The position numbers and the translations under genes were made by a program. A stretch of DNA of 40,702 nt from an uncultured Bacteroidales bacterium. GTDB taxonomy: Bacteria > Bacteroidota > Bacteroidia > Bacteroidales > Bacteroidaceae. Shown here piece by piece: positions 1 through 40,391 of this stretch. The notes under the pieces were generated by a model that was not told where the DNA came from, made no database searches, and saw only the letters and a list, made by a program, of their open reading frames with translations. The stretch spans positions 1 to 40,702 of the forward strand of contig CACXEH010000102.1 of the NCBI GenBank assembly GCA_902766625.1, in the 5' to 3' direction. Each line of letters begins with the position of its first letter. Position 1 is the stretch's first letter.

Positions 1-67
1 ATCGCGATGAAAATTTTCGTGTATCAAGGATAAAAGTTTTCATGTATCGCGATAAAAATTTCAAAGC
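1..67. repeat. Tandem array of ~22-bp units, cut by the window edge
   Basis: Three diverged units can be laid end to end at 1-22, 23-45 and 46-67. Each begins ATCGCGAT or ATCAAGGAT, followed by an A-rich stretch with AAAATTT or AAAGTTTT and, in the first two, a TGT end. Units 1 and 3 share ATCGCGAT; unit 2 is the variant. The array probably continues to the left of the window, so the true copy number is unknown. It lies upstream of the promoter of the first gene. Function is not known; similar short A/T-rich tandem arrays are common between genes in this phylum, so it may be a simple intergenic repeat. Confidence 0.6.
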
Positions 68-12941: not shown

Positions 12942-13952
12942 ATGCGATGCATGAAACAACGTAAATTATTGGGGCTGTTTGCCGCCATCATCATAGGTAT
13001 CTGTGCCATGACCTCATGTACCGGCAAAGGCATGAATCCGCCGGCATCGGCCGACACGACAGTATACATCCCACAGGCGCCCGACTATGCCGACACGACG
13101 ATGTGGATAACCATGGACATGGACACGGAATGTACAGGGGCAGATATTTTCTATGTCGTCTCGACTTGGGAAAAAGACTGGACAACGGATGACGGACACC
13201 TCTGCCACTATGCCGATGTATGGAATCCCGGGCACCGCCAACGAATGGCGACGGAAATCAACCGCATAGCCAGCTATATGGCTCCGGGAAACCGATTTTA
13301 TGCACCTTACTACCGGCATACCACTATCGACGCATGGGTAACTCAGAATGAAGACACTATCCAGCAGCGCACTCGTCTGGCCATGGCCGACGTATGTGAT
13401 GCCTTTGATCGCTTTCAGGCACAGCGCGACACTCTGCGCCCGTTTATAATCGCTGGATTCAGTCAAGGTGGCATGGCTGTTGTAGAACTGTTGAAGCACA
13501 TGAGTGACGCGACATACAGCCAGATGGCTGCAGCCTATGTTTTGGGCTATAAAGTGACCGATGACGACATGGCGCAGTGCAGTCACATTCTCCCTGCCAA
13601 AGGTGAAAAGGACACGGGAGTCACCATCTGTTACAACACAGTGAAAGATGTGAAATATGTCAAGCCCCTTATCGCCAGCTCGTCCATATGTATCAACCCC
13701 GTAAACTGGTACACCGATGCCACACCGGCCAGACTGCATGACACCATCACCATTACCTTGTCGCCAAAGCATCACGTTCTCGTGGCCACAGGCTACAGCG
13801 CATCAGAGTACAAGCCTTACCGCGGCATCATCAACGTGGGCGATATCCACAGCTGCGAGCCATGGCTTTACAGCGAATGTCTGCAGAAGAACATCAATGT
13901 GAGAGCCCGCGAGTGGCGGAAGGGAGTCGGCCGCTACAGGCTTTCTGATTAG
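12942..13952 (+). CDS. DUF3089 family lipoprotein (alpha/beta-hydrolase fold)
   Basis: A 336-residue protein with a lipoprotein signal ending MTSC (Cys26 from the first ATG). A second ATG three codons later gives a tighter signal and may be the true start. The body shows the DUF3089 pattern: ADIFYVVSTWEKDW near 67-80, NRFYAPYYRH near 117-126, and a nucleophile elbow GFSQGG at 172-177 with Ser174 as probable catalytic serine. A late His (KHHVLVATGY) could complete a triad. It is likely an envelope-anchored esterase or lipase-like enzyme of unknown substrate. It is monocistronic, divergent from ffh and convergent with the fumarase gene, and followed by repeat copy A. No TAnnTTTG was found at its start. 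Confidence 0.85.
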   Translation: MRCMKQRKLLGLFAAIIIGICAMTSCTGKGMNPPASADTTVYIPQAPDYADTTMWITMDMDTECTGADIFYVVSTWEKDWTTDDGHLCHYADVWNPGHRQRMATEINRIASYMAPGNRFYAPYYRHTTIDAWVTQNEDTIQQRTRLAMADVCDAFDRFQAQRDTLRPFIIAGFSQGGMAVVELLKHMSDATYSQMAAAYVLGYKVTDDDMAQCSHILPAKGEKDTGVTICYNTVKDVKYVKPLIASSSICINPVNWYTDATPARLHDTITITLSPKHHVLVATGYSASEYKPYRGIINVGDIHSCEPWLYSECLQKNINVRAREWRKGVGRYRLSD

Positions 13953-13997
13953 CATTATACTGGAAGAAACAAACAAACCGTCACGACACTTTTTTCA

Positions 13998-14081
13998 TTC
14001 CATCCCACAGAACGTAAGTTCCGAACAATGGAACATACATTCCATCCTGTAGAATTTACGTTCCACCCGATGGAACGAAAA
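13998..14081 (+). repeat. Dispersed 4 x 21-bp palindromic repeat, copy A
   Basis: Four consecutive 21-bp units at 13998-14018, 14019-14039, 14040-14060 and 14061-14081. Each has TTC at unit positions 1-3 and GAA at 13-15, usually extended to TTCC...GGAA, so every unit is an imperfect palindrome. Unit 4 ends GGAACGAAAA and runs into a tail (CGGCAGAAAAAG) related to the tails of the other two copies. It lies between the convergent DUF3089 and fumarase genes. Any small open reading frames across it follow from the 21-bp period and are not called as genes. Confidence 0.92.
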
Positions 14082-14159
14082 TCGTATCGGCAGAAAAAGC
14101 GACATTTCTACCCTATACTAAAAAGGAATTTCAGCAAAGGGAAGAAAAAACGATTATAT

Positions 14160-14235: not shown

Positions 14236-15885
14236 TTACTTAGAGCATTGCGGACACCAAGGCTTGAGCTGCTTGAAAAAGTCATTGCCTTTATCGTCCA
14301 CCAGAATGAAGGCAGGGAAGTCCTCAACAACAATTTTCCATATTGCCTCCATACCCAGCTCTGGATATTCAACACATTCAATGCTCTTAATAGAACTCTG
14401 TGACAATACCGCTGCCACACCGCCGATAGTGCCGAGATAAAAACCGCCATGCTTCTTGCAGGCATCAGTAACCTGCTGAGTGCGGTTGCCCTTGGCAATC
14501 ATCACGAGACTTGCCCCATTGTCCTGGAACTCATCCACATATGGATCCATACGGTTTGCCGTGGTCGGTCCCATAGAACCGCAAGGATAACCCTCGGGGG
14601 TCTTTGCAGGACCGGCATACAGAATAGGATGATTCTTGAAATAATCAGGCATACCCTCTCCGGCATCCAGACGGGCCTTCAGCTTGGCATGGGCGATATC
14701 GCGTGCCACAATAATGGTACCCTTCAGGTTGACACGTGTGCTGACAGGATATTTTGTCAATTCGGCACGGACAGCGTCTATGCCTTTGTCCAAATCTATC
14801 TCTATACCTTTAGGACCCTCACCGGGATTGCGCAATGCCTCAGGGATAAGTTCTGTAGGGTTATCATCCATCTTCTCAATCCAGATACCGTCCTCATTGA
14901 TTTTTGCCTTAATATTGCGGTCTGCCGAACAACTGACACCCATACCGATAGGGCAACTGGCGCCATGACGGGGCAGACGAATGACACGGATGTCGTGAGC
15001 AAGATATTTGCCTCCAAATTGTGCGCCAAGGCCTATCTTCTGCGCTTCCTTCAACAATTTCTCTTCCAAATCAATGTCACGGAAGGCGCGGCCTGTCTCG
15101 TCACCCGTTGTCGGCAGACTGTCATAATACTTGATGGAGGCCAGTTTAACCGTCAGCAGATTCTTCTCTGCGCTTGTGCCACCTATGACAAATGCAATAT
15201 GATAAGGAGGACAAGCCGCTGTGCCCAGATGCTTCATCTCCTCAACAAGGAACGGCAATAAAGTGCCCTCGTTTTGTATTGTGGCCTTGGTCATGGGATA
15301 GAAATATGTCTTATTGGCAGAGCCGCCTCCCTTTGCCACCATGACGAAGCGGTACTCAGCACCTTCAACAGCCTCGATATCAATCTGCGCAGGCAGGTTG
15401 CACCTTGTATTGACTTCGTCATACATATTCATGGGAGCGTTCTGGGAATAACGGAGATTGTCTTGCGTATAAGTATTGAATACGCCTCTGCTCAAAGCCT
15501 CTTCATCCTCAAAACCTGTCCAGACCTGCTGTCCTTTTTCGCCGTGAATAATGGCTGTGCCCGTATCCTGACAGAACGGAAGGATGCCTTTGACAGCAGT
15601 TTCGGCATTGCGCAGAAATTGCAATGCAACATATTTGTCGTTCTCGCTTGCCTCTGGGTCATGGAGTATTTTTGCCACCTGGAGATTGTGCTCGCGGCGC
15701 AACATAAACTCAACATCATGGAAGCACTGCTGCGACAGCAGAGTCAAAGCCTCCTTACTAACCTTGAGGATTTTCTTACCCTCAAACTCACCGACACTGA
15801 CGCCCTCCTTAGTCAGGAGACGATACTCGGTCTTGTCTTCGCCAAGTTGAAACATTGGCGCATACTTAAATTCCGGATTTGCCAT
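14236..15885 (-). CDS. Class I fumarate hydratase (iron-sulfur)
   Basis: A 549-residue oxygen-sensitive [4Fe-4S] fumarase converting fumarate and malate. Family marks are the N-terminal [18 protein letters not shown] with the first cluster cysteine, [17 protein letters not shown], the [20 protein letters not shown] block with further cysteines, and [15 protein letters not shown] near the C-terminus. Its length and unbroken alpha-beta arrangement match the single-chain FumA/FumB type. In Bacteroidales this enzyme works in the reductive branch from oxaloacetate to succinate. The gene is last in the rsmI-hflX run, 25 bp after the DUF4954 gene, and a strong terminator follows. Confidence 0.95.
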
Positions 15886-22929: not shown

Positions 22930-23523
22930 CCCATAACGCTTTGCGATAAGCATCCTTCGGCGCGCGGATGGCGCATGAAGCTCACGCTGCCCGTCGATGA
23001 TCCATTCTGGAACGAGCATCATCCTGGCGACCGCTGGAACTGCAAATGCTCTCTGGAGGCTACCGATGAGCCTGTAGTGCGTCCCGCTGACTTGGAGCCT
23101 ACACATCCACAACGCGGACTTGAAAACAATCCGGGCAAAGACGGACATACGTTCTCTGACAAACACCCGTATTTCCCCAGCGATTGCAACCGTTGTTTCG
23201 CTAACCGAGGATTGAAGAATAAACTCAAAGGTTTATTCCTAAATCAAGAGAAGAATTGCTATAGTTGCCCTCTCATCGATAACAAGATGAAGAAAGCAGC
23301 AGATAAAGTAAATTGGCTCTTCAACATCAGAAAGAAGCGAGCCATCAAGCAGGCTCAGCAGCTCGCCAACGAGCAACGCCGCAAGTTCTTAGTGCTCAAC
23401 TTCAAGGGCAAACCAACTGTCGTTTCCATGAAGCAGATTAAGTTCTGGATAAGCACCAAGCAGGTGAACAAAGATGCTGACTACTTCCGCGAAATGGCAC
23501 TCTTCACAGCCATGCCTAAGTAA
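22930..23523 (+). pseudogene. Truncated Mu-like phage head-morphogenesis (minor head, MuF-type) protein
   Basis: The ATG-started frame is 22975-23523 (182 aa), but the frame is open from 22930 and the family-like sequence begins before that ATG (DKHPSARGWRMKLTLPVDDPFW), so this is the C-terminal remainder of a longer gene. LPVDDPFWNEHHPGDRWNCKC is the typical C-terminal motif of Mu-like phage minor head proteins (x-DPFW-x-PP-xW-C-C). The following PTHPQRGLENNPGKDG and SDKHPYFPSDC are typical of Bacteroidetes Mu-like phages. A distal part with two CxxC pairs (CNRC, CYSC), a basic helix and VLNFKGKPTVVSMKQIKFWI may be an appended toxin-like or zinc domain. No other head gene survives upstream; the tRNA terminator abuts it. 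Confidence 0.75.
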
Positions 23524-23670: not shown

Positions 23671-23681
23671 CTTTGCCGTAT

Positions 23682-23706
23682 GCCGATACTATCGGCTGTT
23701 TTTCTC
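23682..23706 (+). terminator. Possible intrinsic terminator at the edge of the prophage relic
   Basis: GCCGATA at 23682-23688 and TATCGGC at 23690-23696 form a perfect inverted repeat (a 5-bp stem with a 5-nt loop is the practical form), followed by TGTTTTTCT. It could stop plus-strand transcription. It may also be part of the outer tail of repeat copy B. Confidence 0.4.
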
Positions 23707-23714
23707 CGGCATCT

Positions 23715-23798
23715 TTTCCGTTCCAAAGGATGGAATGTAAATTCCATTGGGCAGAATATAAGTTCCACGGGATGGAACATACATTCCATCCCGTGGAA
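23715..23798 (-). repeat. Dispersed 4 x 21-bp palindromic repeat, copy B
   Basis: Read on the minus strand from 23798, four 21-bp units follow the TTC-N9-GAA plan; unit 4 ends GGAACGGAAA and is followed by a tail with CCGGAGAAAAA. The orientation is opposite to copies A and C. It lies between the gpG-like fragment and the 3' end of the convergent ABC permease gene (80 bp away). Confidence 0.92.
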
Positions 23799-23877
23799 CT
23801 GAAAACTTACAGCGACATTACCGCGCAATATTCCGCAGTAAAGGACGTTTTATCACAGGAGAGACACCCTCCAGCGT

Positions 23878-25179
23878 TTACTTGAATCTAATCCATCTTG
23901 CCATTTCCTTGAATGACGGCTTCTTGCCATACATCAAAATGCCGACACGGTAAATCTTCGCACTCAGCCATATCACGAGAATGGCTGTGGCATAAAGCAG
24001 CACCAAGGAAAGGATAAGTTGCCATACAGGCACGCTGAAAGGCAGACGCACCATCATGACGATGGGTGATGTCAGCGGGAAATAAGAGCACCACAGTGCC
24101 AAGGGACCGTCAGGATTCTCAATGCTGAACATGCCGGCATACAGTGCGAAAATCATGAGGATAACAATGGGCATCATAAACTGCGACGAGTCGGCCTGCT
24201 CGTTGATGGACGCACCTATCGCCGCAAAGAATGAGGCATACAGCAGATAACCGCCAATGAAATACAAGACGAACATAATGCTTATCTGCAACAGATTCAT
24301 ACCTTGAATAATCTGCAGGAACTCAGGCGTCTGCGCGTCGGGGATAGTCACGCCCTGCACACCTCCGGCCATAGCAGCAGCCTGAGACGGGTCGATATCG
24401 GATGACAATACGCCGGAAAGAGCCACCATGCCTATGGCTATCAATACACCCCATATAAGAAATTGGAACAAGCCGACGAGAGCCACGCCGATAATCTTTC
24501 CCATCATCATCTGGAACGGTTTGACGGAAGAGACCATAATCTCCATGATGCGATTGGTCTTTTCCTCCATCACGCCCTGCATGACCATACTGCCATAGGA
24601 CAAGACAAACATATAAATAAGCAGGGTAAACAACATGCCGACTAGTCCGGCTATCTTGAAATCTGACATTTTCTCACCGCCGTCATCGGTCCACTTGACT
24701 GTGCGAACTTCATAGCGGACATCGCTCTCGGCTATAATCCTGTCAATATCAGGAATGCCATACGATGCCATGCGCTCATTGCGGATATTGTCGCGGACGA
24801 CGCTGTTGAAATAGCGGGTTATCTCCACAGGAACTTCCTTACGGGAATAGATAGTGGCACCCAATGAGTCCTGTGACAAATCTTTGCTGATGACTATAAC
24901 TGCCGTATAAGGACTGTCTTCGCTGCGGAGTTCCTCAGCGAATTTTTTCTCCGGCATGAAATGTATTTTGCCGGTGTCCTTCAGGAGCGGCGCATATTTG
25001 CCCGTGTGGTCTATCAGGGCAACGTTGAATTTCTCATCGTTATCCATTGTGGACAACAGGACGGGAACGGTTATGACACCGACAAACAAGATTGGCATCA
25101 ATATGGTCAGTAAAATAAATGACTTCTTACGGACGCGTGTCATAAACTCACGCTCAATAACGATAAATATTTTGTTCAT
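23878..25179 (-). CDS. ABC-2 type transporter permease (NatB-like)
   Basis: A 433-residue inner-membrane protein. An N-terminal membrane segment (about 20-42, FILLTILMPILFVGVITVPVLL) is followed by a large extracytoplasmic domain (about 45-175) and a cluster of five or six membrane segments in the C-terminal half, the layout of NatB/YhaP-like ABC-2 permeases. The stretch MVMQGVMEEKTNRIMEIMVSSVKPFQMMMGKI is the typical coupling helix region. It pairs with the ATPase gene 21 bp upstream. Related systems export sodium, antibiotics or peptides, and the substrate is unknown here. It is the last gene of the murF run. Confidence 0.92.
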   Translation of the reverse strand: MNKIFIVIEREFMTRVRKKSFILLTILMPILFVGVITVPVLLSTMDNDEKFNVALIDHTGKYAPLLKDTGKIHFMPEKKFAEELRSEDSPYTAVIVISKDLSQDSLGATIYSRKEVPVEITRYFNSVVRDNIRNERMASYGIPDIDRIIAESDVRYEVRTVKWTDDGGEKMSDFKIAGLVGMLFTLLIYMFVLSYGSMVMQGVMEEKTNRIMEIMVSSVKPFQMMMGKIIGVALVGLFQFLIWGVLIAIGMVALSGVLSSDIDPSQAAAMAGGVQGVTIPDAQTPEFLQIIQGMNLLQISIMFVLYFIGGYLLYASFFAAIGASINEQADSSQFMMPIVILMIFALYAGMFSIENPDGPLALWCSYFPLTSPIVMMVRLPFSVPVWQLILSLVLLYATAILVIWLSAKIYRVGILMYGKKPSFKEMARWIRFK

Positions 25180-36217: not shown

Positions 36218-39200
36218 TTACCTGAAGTTTTCAATCCATCTGCGCGCATTGACAAATGCCTCTATCCAAGGTGTAACTTCATCCATACGTCGGCTGAGAG
36301 GGTACCATGCATTCTGCCACGGGAAGATAGCCCTCTCCAGATGTGGCATCATGGCCAAATGACGACCGTCAGAACTACATATACCTGCTACGTCAAAATC
36401 AGATCCGTTAGGATTTGCCGGATACTCTGAATAGTTATATTTTGCAACAATGTTATATGCACCCTCGCCTTTAGGCAGTGAGAACTTTCCTTCTCCGTGT
36501 GCAACCCATAGTCCCAGTTTAGAACCACTCAGGCTTCCGAACATCACGCTGTCGTTCTGAGGAATTTGCAAGGAAACAAATTCACTTTCAAACTTATGAC
36601 TGTCATTGTGAAGCATCTTGCTGCCGTTGTTGCCTGTGAGGCCAAGTTCTACCATCAACTGACAGCCGTTGCAAATACCGAGCGACAATGTATCATTGCG
36701 TGCATAGAACTTATCCAATGATTCTTTTGCCTTTTGGTTATAAAGAAATGCACCTGCCCATCCTTTAGCTGAACCCAATACGTCAGAATTGGAGAAGCCG
36801 CCGCAGAATACAATCATATTGATATCCTCCAATGTCTCACGGCCACTGATGAGGTCGGTCATCATGACATCTTTGACATCAAATCCTGCAAGATATAACG
36901 AGTATGCCATTTCACGCTCGCCGTTTGTTCCTTTCTCTCGTATAATAGCCGCCTTGACTCCCATCTCCTTGCGCCGGTCTGCCGAAATGCCGTATTGCGC
37001 CAATGTACCCTTGAAACTTGGTTTGAACTTCATTTCCAAAGGTTGTTTTTTATAATTGTCACGGCGCATTTCAGCACGGCCGTTGGCAGTCTGCCGACGC
37101 TCCAACAAATATGACGTATTATACCACACATCTCTCCAATGGTCTATGTCAAGGACTTTCTCTTCTGTGCCATTCTTAATGGTAAGCGTGCGTGCGTTAG
37201 GTACGGAATAGCCTATCTTTGCATATGCCACCCCTGCATCTTCCATTATTTTTTTGAATTCATCCTTGTCTTTGTCGGCTATCTCTATTACGACACCCGG
37301 ATTCTCTGCAAAGAGGGTCTTAACGATATCATCACTGTGCAGGTCATGCAGGTTAACGTGGAGTCCGCCTGTTGTGTTGGCAAATGTCATTTCAAGCAGC
37401 GTGGTAATTAGTCCACCGGCTGAAATATCATGTCCTGCCATGACAAGGCCCTTGTTGATAAGTGTCTGTACAACATCAAACGCCTGGGCGAAATATTCAG
37501 GTTCTTTGACTGTCGGCACATCACTGCCTACTTTCCCGAGAGCCTGCGCAAACGCAGAGCCACCGAGACGCTGCGCATCAAAACTGAAGTCAATATGATA
37601 AATCGAACTGTTCTTATCATTCACCAGCACAGGACTAACCACTTTACGGATATCCTTCACTTCGCCACCACTGGAGACGATGACCGTTCCCGGGGCAATG
37701 ATCTTTTCGCCATTAGGATATTTCTGTGTCATGGACAGAGAGTCCTTGCCTGTTGGCACATTGATGTGCAGGGCACAACAGAAGTCCGACAAGGCCTGCA
37801 CAGCACTGTAGAGGCGTGCATCCTCTCCTTTCTGGCTACGGCAGGGCCACATCCAATTGGCACTGAGGCTTACACTGCTGAGCCCTTCTGTCAGTGGAGC
37901 CCAAACGATGTTGGTCAACGACTCTGCAACCGACAACACTGAACCGGCCTCCGGTGACGCCAGTCCTGCCTGTGGAGCATGCCCCAACGCCGTTGCGATA
38001 CCTTTGCGCCCACGGTAATCCAATGCTACGACACCACAGTCTGACAAAGGTAACTGTATCTCACCCTGACACTGCTGACGGGCAATCTTACCTGTCACCG
38101 AACGGTCTACCTTGTTGGTCAGCCAGTCTTTGCAAGCCACAGCCTCCAACCGTAGGACTTTATCCAAATATTCTTCTAACTTATCAGCGGAATATGTCAC
38201 ATCTTCATATTTGCGCTCTACTGTCTCATCGTGCATATATGTCACAGGCGAGTGACCAAACATCTGCTTGACATCCAAGTCAAACGGTTTAATGCCATCA
38301 CCTTGCCTGAAACTGAAATGAGCGTCACCTGTTGTCTCACCTACAACATAGAGTGGCGCCCGCTCACGCTCAGCTATTTTGCGTACATGTTCAATATGCT
38401 TTTCGTCAATGAGCAAACCCATGCGCTCCTGACTTTCATTGGCGATAATTTCCTTACTGGAGAGAGTCTTATCTCCTATCGGGAGTTTTGTCATATCTAT
38501 CTCTCCGCCACATTCCTCTACTAATTCCGACAGGCAATTCACATGTCCCGCTGAACCATGATCATGAATTGAAACGACAGGATTGACATCCTCTTCACAG
38601 AGTGCGCGAACCAGATTGTAAGCACGTTTCTGCATTTCCGGGTTTGCACGCTGCACGGCATTCAACTCTATGCCATTGGAGTAACGACCCGTATCAACCG
38701 ATGACACCGAACCGCCACCGAGGCCGATACGATAGTTATCACCGCCTACGACCACAATCTTATTATCTTTTTGCGGTTTCTTTTTCAGGCAATCACGCTT
38801 TGTACCATAACCCACACCGCCTGCCAGCATAATAACCTTGTCGTAGGCATACTTCTCCTGCCCCTCTTCGTGCTCAAAGGTCAGGACTGAGCCGGCGATG
38901 AGCGGCTGGCCAAACTTGTTGCCGAAATCCGACGCTCCGTTAGAAGCCTTGATGAGTATCTGCTCCGGCGTCTGATACAACCACTTACGTACAGGCAGGA
39001 TATTCTCCCACGACTGAACACCGTTTTCCTTACGGGGATACGATGTCATATAGACAGCCGTTCCGGCTATAGGCCACGAGCCGGTGCCTCCACCCATACG
39101 GTCACGTATTTCACCGCCCGTACCTGTTGCAGCACCATTGAAAGGCTCTACAGTCGTCGGGAAATTATGCGTTTCCGCTTTCAGTGAGATAACGCTCTCT

Positions 39201-39913
39201 ATGTCTTTTATCTTGAAGTAATCACTCGTACTTTGGTCTGACGGTGCAAATTGTTCCACCACAGGACCTTGCGCAAAAGCAACGTTATCCTTATATGCGG
39301 AGAGTATCTTGTTGGGATTCTCCTGCGTCGTCTTTTTGATAAGGGAGAACAGGCTGCTCTCCTTCTCTTCGCCGTCAATGATAAACACGCCGCCGAAAAT
39401 CTTATGCCGACAATGCTCAGAGTTGATTTGTGCAAAACCGAATATCTCGGAGTCGGTCAGCGGACGGCCTAATTCCTTCTCTATCTTGTGCAGATATTCT
39501 ATCTCCTCCGGCGAAAGCGCCAAGCCCTCCTGCTCATTATACTCTTCGATATTCTCAATATGCTTAATAGGCTCAGGCTGGATATCGACCGTGAATATCT
39601 CCTGATCCAATCCTTCGTACAGGCGTTGCAACATATAGTCATATTTAGCGTCAGCACCACTGACAGGGAAATATTCCTCAATACGCGCAACCCCCTGGAT
39701 ACCCATATTTTGAGTTATCTCCACGGCGTTGGTACTCCACGGAGTAATCATTTCGCGGCGCGGACCAACAAAACAGCCGCCAATCTCTTCACTGTTAACC
39801 ATACCGGCATTGCCAAACAGCCAGCATAAAGCATCAAACTGCTCTCCTGAAAGTTCATTGGTCAGACCTACCGCAATGATGCTCCCGGAAGTTGTCTTAA
39901 AAAATTTTATCAT
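36218..39913 (-). CDS. purL: Phosphoribosylformylglycinamidine synthase, large single-chain PurL
   Basis: A 1231-residue enzyme of purine synthesis converting FGAR to FGAM with ATP and glutamine. It is the long form with the linker, synthetase and amidotransferase in one chain. Visible blocks are INSEHCRHK near 168-176, KAETHNFPTTVEPFNGAATGTGGEIRD (about 250-276), and the second half-synthetase (GHDISAGGLITTLLEM). The C-terminal glutaminase has LGICNGCQLM with catalytic Cys1084, AHGEGKF and the His1191-x-Glu1193 pair in MPHLER. It is apparently intact. A -7 element lies 29 bp upstream and the NUDIX gene follows. Confidence 0.98.
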   Translation of the reverse strand: MIKFFKTTSGSIIAVGLTNELSGEQFDALCWLFGNAGMVNSEEIGGCFVGPRREMITPWSTNAVEITQNMGIQGVARIEEYFPVSGADAKYDYMLQRLYEGLDQEIFTVDIQPEPIKHIENIEEYNEQEGLALSPEEIEYLHKIEKELGRPLTDSEIFGFAQINSEHCRHKIFGGVFIIDGEEKESSLFSLIKKTTQENPNKILSAYKDNVAFAQGPVVEQFAPSDQSTSDYFKIKDIESVISLKAETHNFPTTVEPFNGAATGTGGEIRDRMGGGTGSWPIAGTAVYMTSYPRKENGVQSWENILPVRKWLYQTPEQILIKASNGASDFGNKFGQPLIAGSVLTFEHEEGQEKYAYDKVIMLAGGVGYGTKRDCLKKKPQKDNKIVVVGGDNYRIGLGGGSVSSVDTGRYSNGIELNAVQRANPEMQKRAYNLVRALCEEDVNPVVSIHDHGSAGHVNCLSELVEECGGEIDMTKLPIGDKTLSSKEIIANESQERMGLLIDEKHIEHVRKIAERERAPLYVVGETTGDAHFSFRQGDGIKPFDLDVKQMFGHSPVTYMHDETVERKYEDVTYSADKLEEYLDKVLRLEAVACKDWLTNKVDRSVTGKIARQQCQGEIQLPLSDCGVVALDYRGRKGIATALGHAPQAGLASPEAGSVLSVAESLTNIVWAPLTEGLSSVSLSANWMWPCRSQKGEDARLYSAVQALSDFCCALHINVPTGKDSLSMTQKYPNGEKIIAPGTVIVSSGGEVKDIRKVVSPVLVNDKNSSIYHIDFSFDAQRLGGSAFAQALGKVGSDVPTVKEPEYFAQAFDVVQTLINKGLVMAGHDISAGGLITTLLEMTFANTTGGLHVNLHDLHSDDIVKTLFAENPGVVIEIADKDKDEFKKIMEDAGVAYAKIGYSVPNARTLTIKNGTEEKVLDIDHWRDVWYNTSYLLERRQTANGRAEMRRDNYKKQPLEMKFKPSFKGTLAQYGISADRRKEMGVKAAIIREKGTNGEREMAYSLYLAGFDVKDVMMTDLISGRETLEDINMIVFCGGFSNSDVLGSAKGWAGAFLYNQKAKESLDKFYARNDTLSLGICNGCQLMVELGLTGNNGSKMLHNDSHKFESEFVSLQIPQNDSVMFGSLSGSKLGLWVAHGEGKFSLPKGEGAYNIVAKYNYSEYPANPNGSDFDVAGICSSDGRHLAMMPHLERAIFPWQNAWYPLSRRMDEVTPWIEAFVNARRWIENFR

Positions 39914-39950: not shown

Positions 39951-40239
39951 CTCTTTTTCATGTATAAAATTCTCCTTGAGACTAAGAAACATTTTATTTT
40001 TACATATGATTTTTCACATCATAATTATTCACGCGACTAAGTTTTATTCGTTTTTCGCCGTTCATAACGCTCTTCCCTGCAAGAAGCGCAACCGGTCACA
40101 GTGCAAATCACAACCTCAGCTTCTTATTATATATGTAATAGGAGGCAGATTGGGCACATCTCACCTTTGCGTGAACTATGCCATATCCTGACCGGATAGC
40201 GGAGGAGCAACATATCACTTCAAGTCGACAAGTGGTCCA

Positions 40240-40323
40240 TTCCAAAGGCTGGAACATACATTCCATCAGCCGGAACTTACGTTCCATACCATAGAACCTA
40301 CATTCCATCCCGCGGAACGGAAA
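40240..40323 (+). repeat. Dispersed 4 x 21-bp palindromic repeat, copy C
   Basis: Four units at 40240-40260, 40261-40281, 40282-40302 and 40303-40323, all with TTC at unit positions 1-3 and GAA at 13-15. Unit 4 ends GGAACGGAAA and runs into a tail with CGGGAAAAAC, as in copies A and B. It lies about 325 bp upstream of purL, with no gene known on its other side. Confidence 0.92.
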
Positions 40324-40391
40324 ACATAGCGGGAAAAACTTCAACGCCTAACGGGGATAGCACGACAAAGAATCCTCCAGACAAGCATAGG

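What the first reader, a model, noticed from the sequence alone, without database searches (positions are those of the whole stretch)
13998..14081. A dispersed repeat family built as exactly four 21-bp palindromic units, three copies in the window
Copies A (13998-14081, +), B (23715-23798, -) and C (40240-40323, +) each have four and only four units. Across the 12 units TTC (unit 1-3) and GAA (unit 13-15) are invariant, C at position 4 is present in 11 and G at 12 in 9, while the middle is free. Unit 4 is special in all copies (GGAACG then A-rich), and a tail with CGG and five A's follows. A fixed copy number, a fixed end unit and a shared tail point to a defined element rather than random tandem slippage. 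I know of no named family that matches.
Basis: seen in the sequence. Interest (0 to 1): 0.75.

Follow-up and report, generated by a model that had tools for sequence, protein, structure and literature searches.

The report
DNA sites for a bacterial chromatin-like protein
The repeat is one of about 100 copies in this gut-type bacterium of a four-part DNA docking array which, by strong but indirect evidence, is the binding site of a little-studied chromatin-type protein (an HU domain joined to a second DNA-reading domain), and related species each seem to pair their own version of the protein with their own version of the array, a pairing for which I found no published description.

Summary
In detail: three arrays of four 21-bp units (TTCC-N7-GGAA-YNTANR). 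The genome holds about 100, always intergenic, with 3-4 units as a rule; both ends carry the same inverted boundary motif. "Exactly four" holds in Phocaeicola (30/32), not here (52/80). Compensatory changes are absent, so it acts as DNA, not an RNA hairpin; the arms are constrained (3/288 changes against 150/1350 in the tails).
The key finding lies outside the window. The genome's only HU-HIG protein with a C-terminal winged-helix-like part (HU-wHTH) has this array in its own promoter. Sixteen of 18 HU-wHTH genes, against 1 of 12 HU-HIG genes without that part, have an array of 21-22-bp palindromic units upstream, the sequence differing between paralogs. In an independent set it was 9 of 11, against 4% of ordinary genes (p=6e-11). 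Three of those arrays recur as dispersed families confined to their own species or genus.
Best explanation: the arrays are cooperative binding sites of a self-regulating HU-wHTH protein, scattered by MITE-like copying. Binding itself is untested; the role is inferred. REP/RAYT, BrickBuilt and terminator readings fail tested features.

The parts
13998..14075 (.). Array A: four 21-bp-spaced units TTCC-N7-GGAA between a DUF3089 gene (12942-13952 +) and fumarase (14236-15885 -)
13958..13997 (.). Left boundary motif of A (inverted copy of the right one; degenerate)
14076..14115 (.). Right boundary motif of A (CGAAAATCGTATCGGC...)
23721..23798 (.). Array B: four units, between ORF 22975-23523 (+) and an ABC-2 transporter gene (23878-25179 -)
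23681..23720 (.). Boundary motif of B on the low-coordinate side
23799..23838 (.). Boundary motif of B on the high-coordinate side
40240..40317 (.). Array C: four units, upstream of purL-like FGAR amidotransferase (36218-39913 -)
40174..40239 (.). Left boundary motif of C, recognisable to about 65 bp outwards
40318..40357 (.). Right boundary motif of C (CGGAAAACATAGCGGG...)

Best explanation
The element is a dyad-symmetric array of (three to) four palindromic binding sites, spaced two helical turns apart on one face of the DNA, for a protein with an N-terminal HU-type domain (Pfam HU-HIG, PF18291) and a C-terminal winged-helix-like DNA-reading part (called HU-wHTH here). Shown: the constrained DNA-level array, its dispersal, and the near-universal presence of an array of matching architecture in HU-wHTH promoters, with dispersed arrays of the same sequence in the same genomes. 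Inferred: that HU-wHTH dimers bind the units cooperatively; that the promoter array, lying just downstream of a -7 box, lets the protein repress its own gene; that the roughly 100 dispersed arrays are docking sites through which it shapes the chromosome and/or nearby promoters; and that they were scattered by MITE-like copying with unidentified machinery, the array being kept by selection while the tails decay.
For: About 100 arrays in G000, always intergenic. G000 has one HU-HIG gene with the C-terminal part (C103:14060-14680), and a four-unit TTCC array ends 63 bp upstream of it. 16/18 HU-wHTH genes against 1/12 HU-HIG genes without that part have an upstream 21-22-bp palindromic array, p=1.5e-5. 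Independent PLSDB genes: 9/11 against 21/539 ordinary ORFs, p=6e-11, including Parabacteroides (another family). Promoter and dispersed arrays share sequence in G000, G014, G300, Prevotella sp. P5-92, P. massiliensis, P. distasonis and B. finegoldii. In Phocaeicola the TTCC-type HU-wHTH gene is in 5/7 genomes with TTCC arrays and 0-2/54 without. -7 box TAnnTTTG 8-39 bp before the array in 14/23 (3.4% expected). DNA-level site: no covariation, mirror orientation of outer units, core complementarity avoided. Constraint: arms 3/288, TA 0/54, tails 150/1350.
Against: No binding data; the pairing is genomic association. The wHTH part rests on Pfam's description of HU-HIG and weak HTH matches (HTH_DeoR E=0.0025); the single-sequence fold failed (pLDDT 32). 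The with/without-wHTH split in the discovery set was made by eye after the loci were seen. 2 of 18 and 2 of 11 HU-wHTH genes lack a detected array (one of the latter has an unclear start), four phage-collection contigs gave none by the detector, and one HU-HIG gene without the C-terminal part has one. Two genomes with few TTCC arrays lack the TTCC-type gene. The 23%-identical HU-wHTH proteins of G000 and Phocaeicola both go with TTCC arms, so protein-arm matching is not simple.
Confidence: 0.75

Rival explanations
1. Non-autonomous mobile element (MITE) whose array serves chiefly its own transposition; HU-wHTH, if it binds, is an accessory architectural protein of that transposition.
For: In Prevotella (about 284 bp) and P. 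massiliensis (about 330-400 bp) the arrays sit in nearly identical elements with sharp edges at unrelated sites; patchy distribution; G300 (probably P. salanitronis) has loci where close relatives lack the array.
Against: No transposase partner or clear target duplication found; in G000 the tails decay while arms stay about 95% intact even in tail-selected copies; HU promoters share only the array, not the tails, so the array has a use outside the element.
Confidence: 0.25
2. REP/REPIN elements with a RAYT (Y1) transposase.
For: Dispersed, intergenic, palindromic, species-specific, paired with a protein gene.
Against: Y1_Tnp (PF01797) absent from G000 (99.99% complete) and from G014, G176, G150, G427; no fixed GTAG/CGTC tag; no pairing covariation.
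Confidence: 0.02
3. Transcribed hairpins: bidirectional terminators or mRNA stabilisers.
For: Five of six strands of A-C fold better than shuffles (z -5 to -6.8), as any palindromic array would.
Against: No compensatory change (AT160 AC33 GT20 GC5); A-C and G-T units mixed within one element; complementary cores avoided; many copies lie between divergent genes (17/30 in Phocaeicola, 25/73 here).
Confidence: 0.04
4. Operators of a conventional regulon: the arrays mainly switch the flanking genes.
For: Enriched between divergent genes in Phocaeicola; promoter arrays just downstream of -7 boxes.
Against: Flanking genes are mixed housekeeping genes with no theme; in G000 arrays lie a median 205 bp from starts and some sit between convergent genes.
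Confidence: 0.2

Closest known systems
REP/REPIN - RAYT systems
   Same: Dispersed species-specific intergenic palindromes that appear to co-vary with a partner protein gene
   Different: Partner is an HU-type DNA-binding protein, not a Y1 transposase; tandem double-strand sites at 21-22 bp, no GTAG/CGTC tag, no stem covariation
BrickBuilt MITE of Porphyromonas gingivalis (PMC4596501)
   Same: Bacteroidales, tandem 23-nt repeats with flanking segments, always intergenic, species-restricted; one copy lies beside a gene annotated DNA-binding protein PF00216
   Different: 1 to 22.8 repeats, different leader and tail, IS5-like TIR GAGACCTTTGCA; no partner protein described in the sections read
HU-HIG / HU_rel proteins (PF18291, TIGR01201)
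   Same: The partner protein belongs here (for TIGR01201 the Phocaeicola protein is just over the cut-off, the G000 protein below it)
   Different: No papers on a DNA target, an operator or a paired repeat family were found in the library searched
One-protein, many-site chromosome organisers (e.g. MatP-matS)
   Same: One protein with many dispersed chromosomal sites (from memory, not tested)
   Different: Here arrays of 3-4 sites, several families per genome, sequence changing between species

Membership tests
REP/RAYT | Y1 (tyrosine HUH) transposase in the genome | tested here: not met
   PF01797: none in G000
REP/RAYT | GTAG or CGTC tag beside the stem | tested here: not met
   Junction between units is YNTANR with free positions
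REP/RAYT | Base-paired stem kept by compensatory change | tested here: not met
BrickBuilt MITE | 23-nt repeats with GAGACC-type TIR | tested here: not met
   21-bp units and a different boundary motif (PMC4596501)
MITE | Terminal inverted repeats and sharp edges at unrelated sites | tested here: inconclusive
   Prevotella and P. massiliensis versions have sharp edges at unrelated sites, with only a short imperfect TIR in Prevotella; in G000 inverted tails but fuzzy edges
MITE | Target-site duplication | tested here: inconclusive
   None evident in the element edges read
MITE | Autonomous partner element sharing the termini | tested here: inconclusive
   Tail search in G000: nearly all sampled hits lay beside arrays; nearby IS3-like copies end outside the element
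Intrinsic terminator | Downstream of genes, directional stem and T-run | tested here: not met
   Contexts include many divergent pairs; no direction
HU-HIG protein family PF18291 (partner protein) | Score above the curated cut-off | tested here: met
   G000 protein 53.5 bits against cut-off 26.2
HU-HIG protein family PF18291 (partner protein) | C-terminal winged helix | tested here: inconclusive
   Weak HTH matches, alignment, failed fold
Sequence-specific target of HU-wHTH | Direct binding | not testable with these tools
   Needs EMSA, DAP-seq or ChIP-seq

The most novel reading that the evidence does not exclude
Bacteroidales run a fast-diverging, sequence-specific chromatin-like system: each lineage's HU-wHTH proteins dock on their own dispersed palindromic arrays (up to about 100 per genome), self-limit their expression through the same array, and organise the chromosome; protein and array sequence change together between species.
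Probability: 0.4. Interest if true: 0.93.

Novelty: categorically new. Interest (0 to 1): 0.87.

Why it matters
Bacteroidales genomes carry numerous HU-HIG genes (3-19 hits in each of the 11 genomes tested) whose targets I found described nowhere. If the pairing holds, it gives a target sequence to a whole subfamily of chromatin-type proteins at once, predicts binding sites genome-wide from sequence alone, explains a class of unclassified repeats in common gut bacteria, and offers a natural series of protein-DNA specificity changes. It makes directly testable what these proteins do.

Tried and rejected
RNA hairpin or terminator (no covariation). REP/RAYT (no Y1 transposase in G000). BrickBuilt (different unit, TIR and copy behaviour). 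Virus-borne element: 0 of 2.9 million viral contigs. Autonomous transposon partner: an IS3-like element beside some Phocaeicola arrays ends outside the element. Empty site for copy A in congeners: neighbour gene not conserved, uninformative. Empty sites in G176: real but nested with other repeats. Strict TTCC pattern suggested absence in congeners; this was misleading, since G014 uses TTCA-type arms and others use different arrays. Structure prediction of an HU-wHTH from single sequence failed. Paper searches for HU-HIG/PF18291/TIGR01201 gave nothing relevant in title or abstract; one B. vulgatus paper (PMC11035120) holds the string HU-HIG once and was not read.

Full report
OBSERVATION. Three arrays at 13998-14075, 23721-23798 and 40240-40317 each hold four units TTCC-N7-GGAA with 6-bp junctions YNTANR at an exact 21-bp period. 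The genome (G000, 2.29 Mb, 138 contigs) has 126+116 exact hits of a 25-base pattern and none of its reversed control; from the fraction seen in 80 fetched arrays I estimate about 98-114 arrays in all. A generic detector (tandem period 19-25 plus self-complementarity) finds none in shuffled sequence.

ANATOMY. Unit number is 4 in 52, 3 in 25, 2 in two and 5 in one of 80 arrays. Of copies found through the boundary motif alone, 8 have four units, 9 three, one two and one one. In Phocaeicola 30 of 32 have four. The tail is a boundary motif present in inverted form at both ends (CGGAAAACTTGTCGGGCTAAAGCGACAC... outwards). The outer units are mirror images (first unit GG-type 40:8, last unit CC-type 29:10, p=7e-8), so the whole has dyad symmetry and no direction. 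Arrays are intergenic in every orientation, with an excess between divergent genes, strong in Phocaeicola (17/30) and mild here (25/73).

DNA, NOT RNA. Units fold well as RNA because they are palindromes, but there are no compensatory changes: positions 5/11 are AT160 AC33 GT20 GC5 with GC expected 4.4, A-C and G-T units mix in one element, left and right tails vary independently, and complementary cores within an element are avoided. In nine orthologous or duplicated pairs the arms changed at 3/288 and the TA at 0/54 positions, against 150/1350 in the tails (p=5e-10 for arms against tails).

DISTRIBUTION. The exact TTCC family is patchy: G000, several Phocaeicola including P. intestinalis Sa1CVN1 and An322, and Prevotella; none in viral contigs. 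G300 is probably P. salanitronis, judged from its 4,242,803-bp chromosome and my memory of that genome. Loosening the arms shows the same design with other letters in G014 (a congener), G263, G181, G332 and G392, and the generic detector finds further 21-22-bp palindromic arrays of unrelated sequence in several genera.

THE PARTNER. An array in five Phocaeicola lies next to a gene whose product matches HU-HIG, 'HU domain fused to wHTH, Ig or Glycine-rich motif'. That gene is found in 5 of 7 Phocaeicola genomes with TTCC arrays and in none (strictly) or two (weakly) of 54 without. Searching HU-HIG in 11 genomes and reading the upstream DNA showed arrays upstream of 16 of 18 proteins with the C-terminal winged-helix-like part, ending 35-130 bp before the start codon in 14 (the other two have a doubtful start codon), against 1 of 12 without it (p=1.5e-5). 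The array sequence differs between paralogs. In G000 there is a single such gene (C103:14060-14680), and its upstream array is of the TTCC type that is dispersed in this genome. In P5-92 and G014 the promoter array likewise matches the dispersed family. The with/without split was made after seeing the loci, so I tested a fresh set: homologs found by protein search in PLSDB records of B. finegoldii, P. massiliensis and Parabacteroides distasonis. Nine of 11 had an upstream array, against 21 of 539 ordinary ORFs at the same settings (p=6e-11); three of the nine arrays are weaker (about three units). Four contigs in the phage collection with homologs gave no array by the detector, though two show palindromes by eye. 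Three of the nine arrays were used as queries: they recur at 50, 17 and 6 places, confined to Phocaeicola massiliensis, Parabacteroides and B. finegoldii respectively.

MECHANISM. Promoter arrays share only the array, not the tails, with dispersed elements in the two genomes compared, and begin 8-39 bp after a TAnnTTTG -7 box in most of the 14 of 23 that have one (p=2e-15; the box consensus is general knowledge of Bacteroides promoters). This is the place for a roadblock operator, so I infer autorepression. The 21-22-bp period is two helical turns, so I infer cooperative binding on one face. Dispersed copies in Prevotella and P. massiliensis lie in nearly identical elements with sharp edges at unrelated sites, so I infer MITE-like spread by machinery not identified here; no target duplication was seen. 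In G000 arms outlast tails (about 95% intact in tail-selected copies), so I infer selection on the array itself. Flanking genes show no common theme, which makes chromosome architecture somewhat more likely than a classical regulon, but this is the weakest step.

CAVEATS. No binding experiment; the C-terminal fold is supported only by Pfam's text and weak HTH matches, and the structure prediction failed. The literature library is open-access only; I recall a 2017 analysis of the HU superfamily by the Aravind group, which could not be found there, and one B. vulgatus paper that contains the string HU-HIG (PMC11035120) was not read. The 'categorically new' label rests on that limited search.

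Noticed in passing
L043, L119, L042, L046 (G300, probably P. salanitronis): An IS3-like element (OrfA HTH, OrfB rve; about 1.56 kb) or its 110-bp end lies about 17-36 bp from the array, same end facing it, at 4 of about 12 loci: the array flank looks like a preferred target.
   Followed up: partly
L117:2049-2242: A roughly 195-bp repeat, 94-99% identical, with dozens of copies in G300 and G176; identity unknown.
   Followed up: no
L042:1923-2108: Another roughly 190-bp repeat family with many copies in G300 and G176, nested next to the array.
   Followed up: no
window 1-61; also L081 and L141 contig ends: A 23-bp tandem repeat (ATCGCGATGAAAATTTTCGTGT-like) at contig ends, next to array tails at two of them; probably a repeat that broke the assembly.
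   Followed up: no
L170, L175, L177, L182 (Phocaeicola, upstream of glnS): An AT-rich four-to-five-unit array (TAAATACAACTTGTATTTA) upstream of glnS in four species; L180 looks like the same site with the array deleted.
   Followed up: partly
L052/L116 unit 4; L043/L118 unit 2: Between related copies one unit core (or unit with junctions) is replaced by its reverse complement, as if flipped between the palindromic arms.
   Followed up: partly
L123:2226-2614 (G176): A truncated HU-wHTH gene copy with its array, a 390-bp duplicate of the glnS-side locus.
   Followed up: partly
L294:3297-4658: A 1.36-kb insertion with a 9-bp duplication inside the left tail of an element (probable IS).
   Followed up: no
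L336 (G263): A 5.5-unit ATACGTAT-type array upstream of an HU-HIG gene that lacks the wHTH part: the single exception.
   Followed up: no
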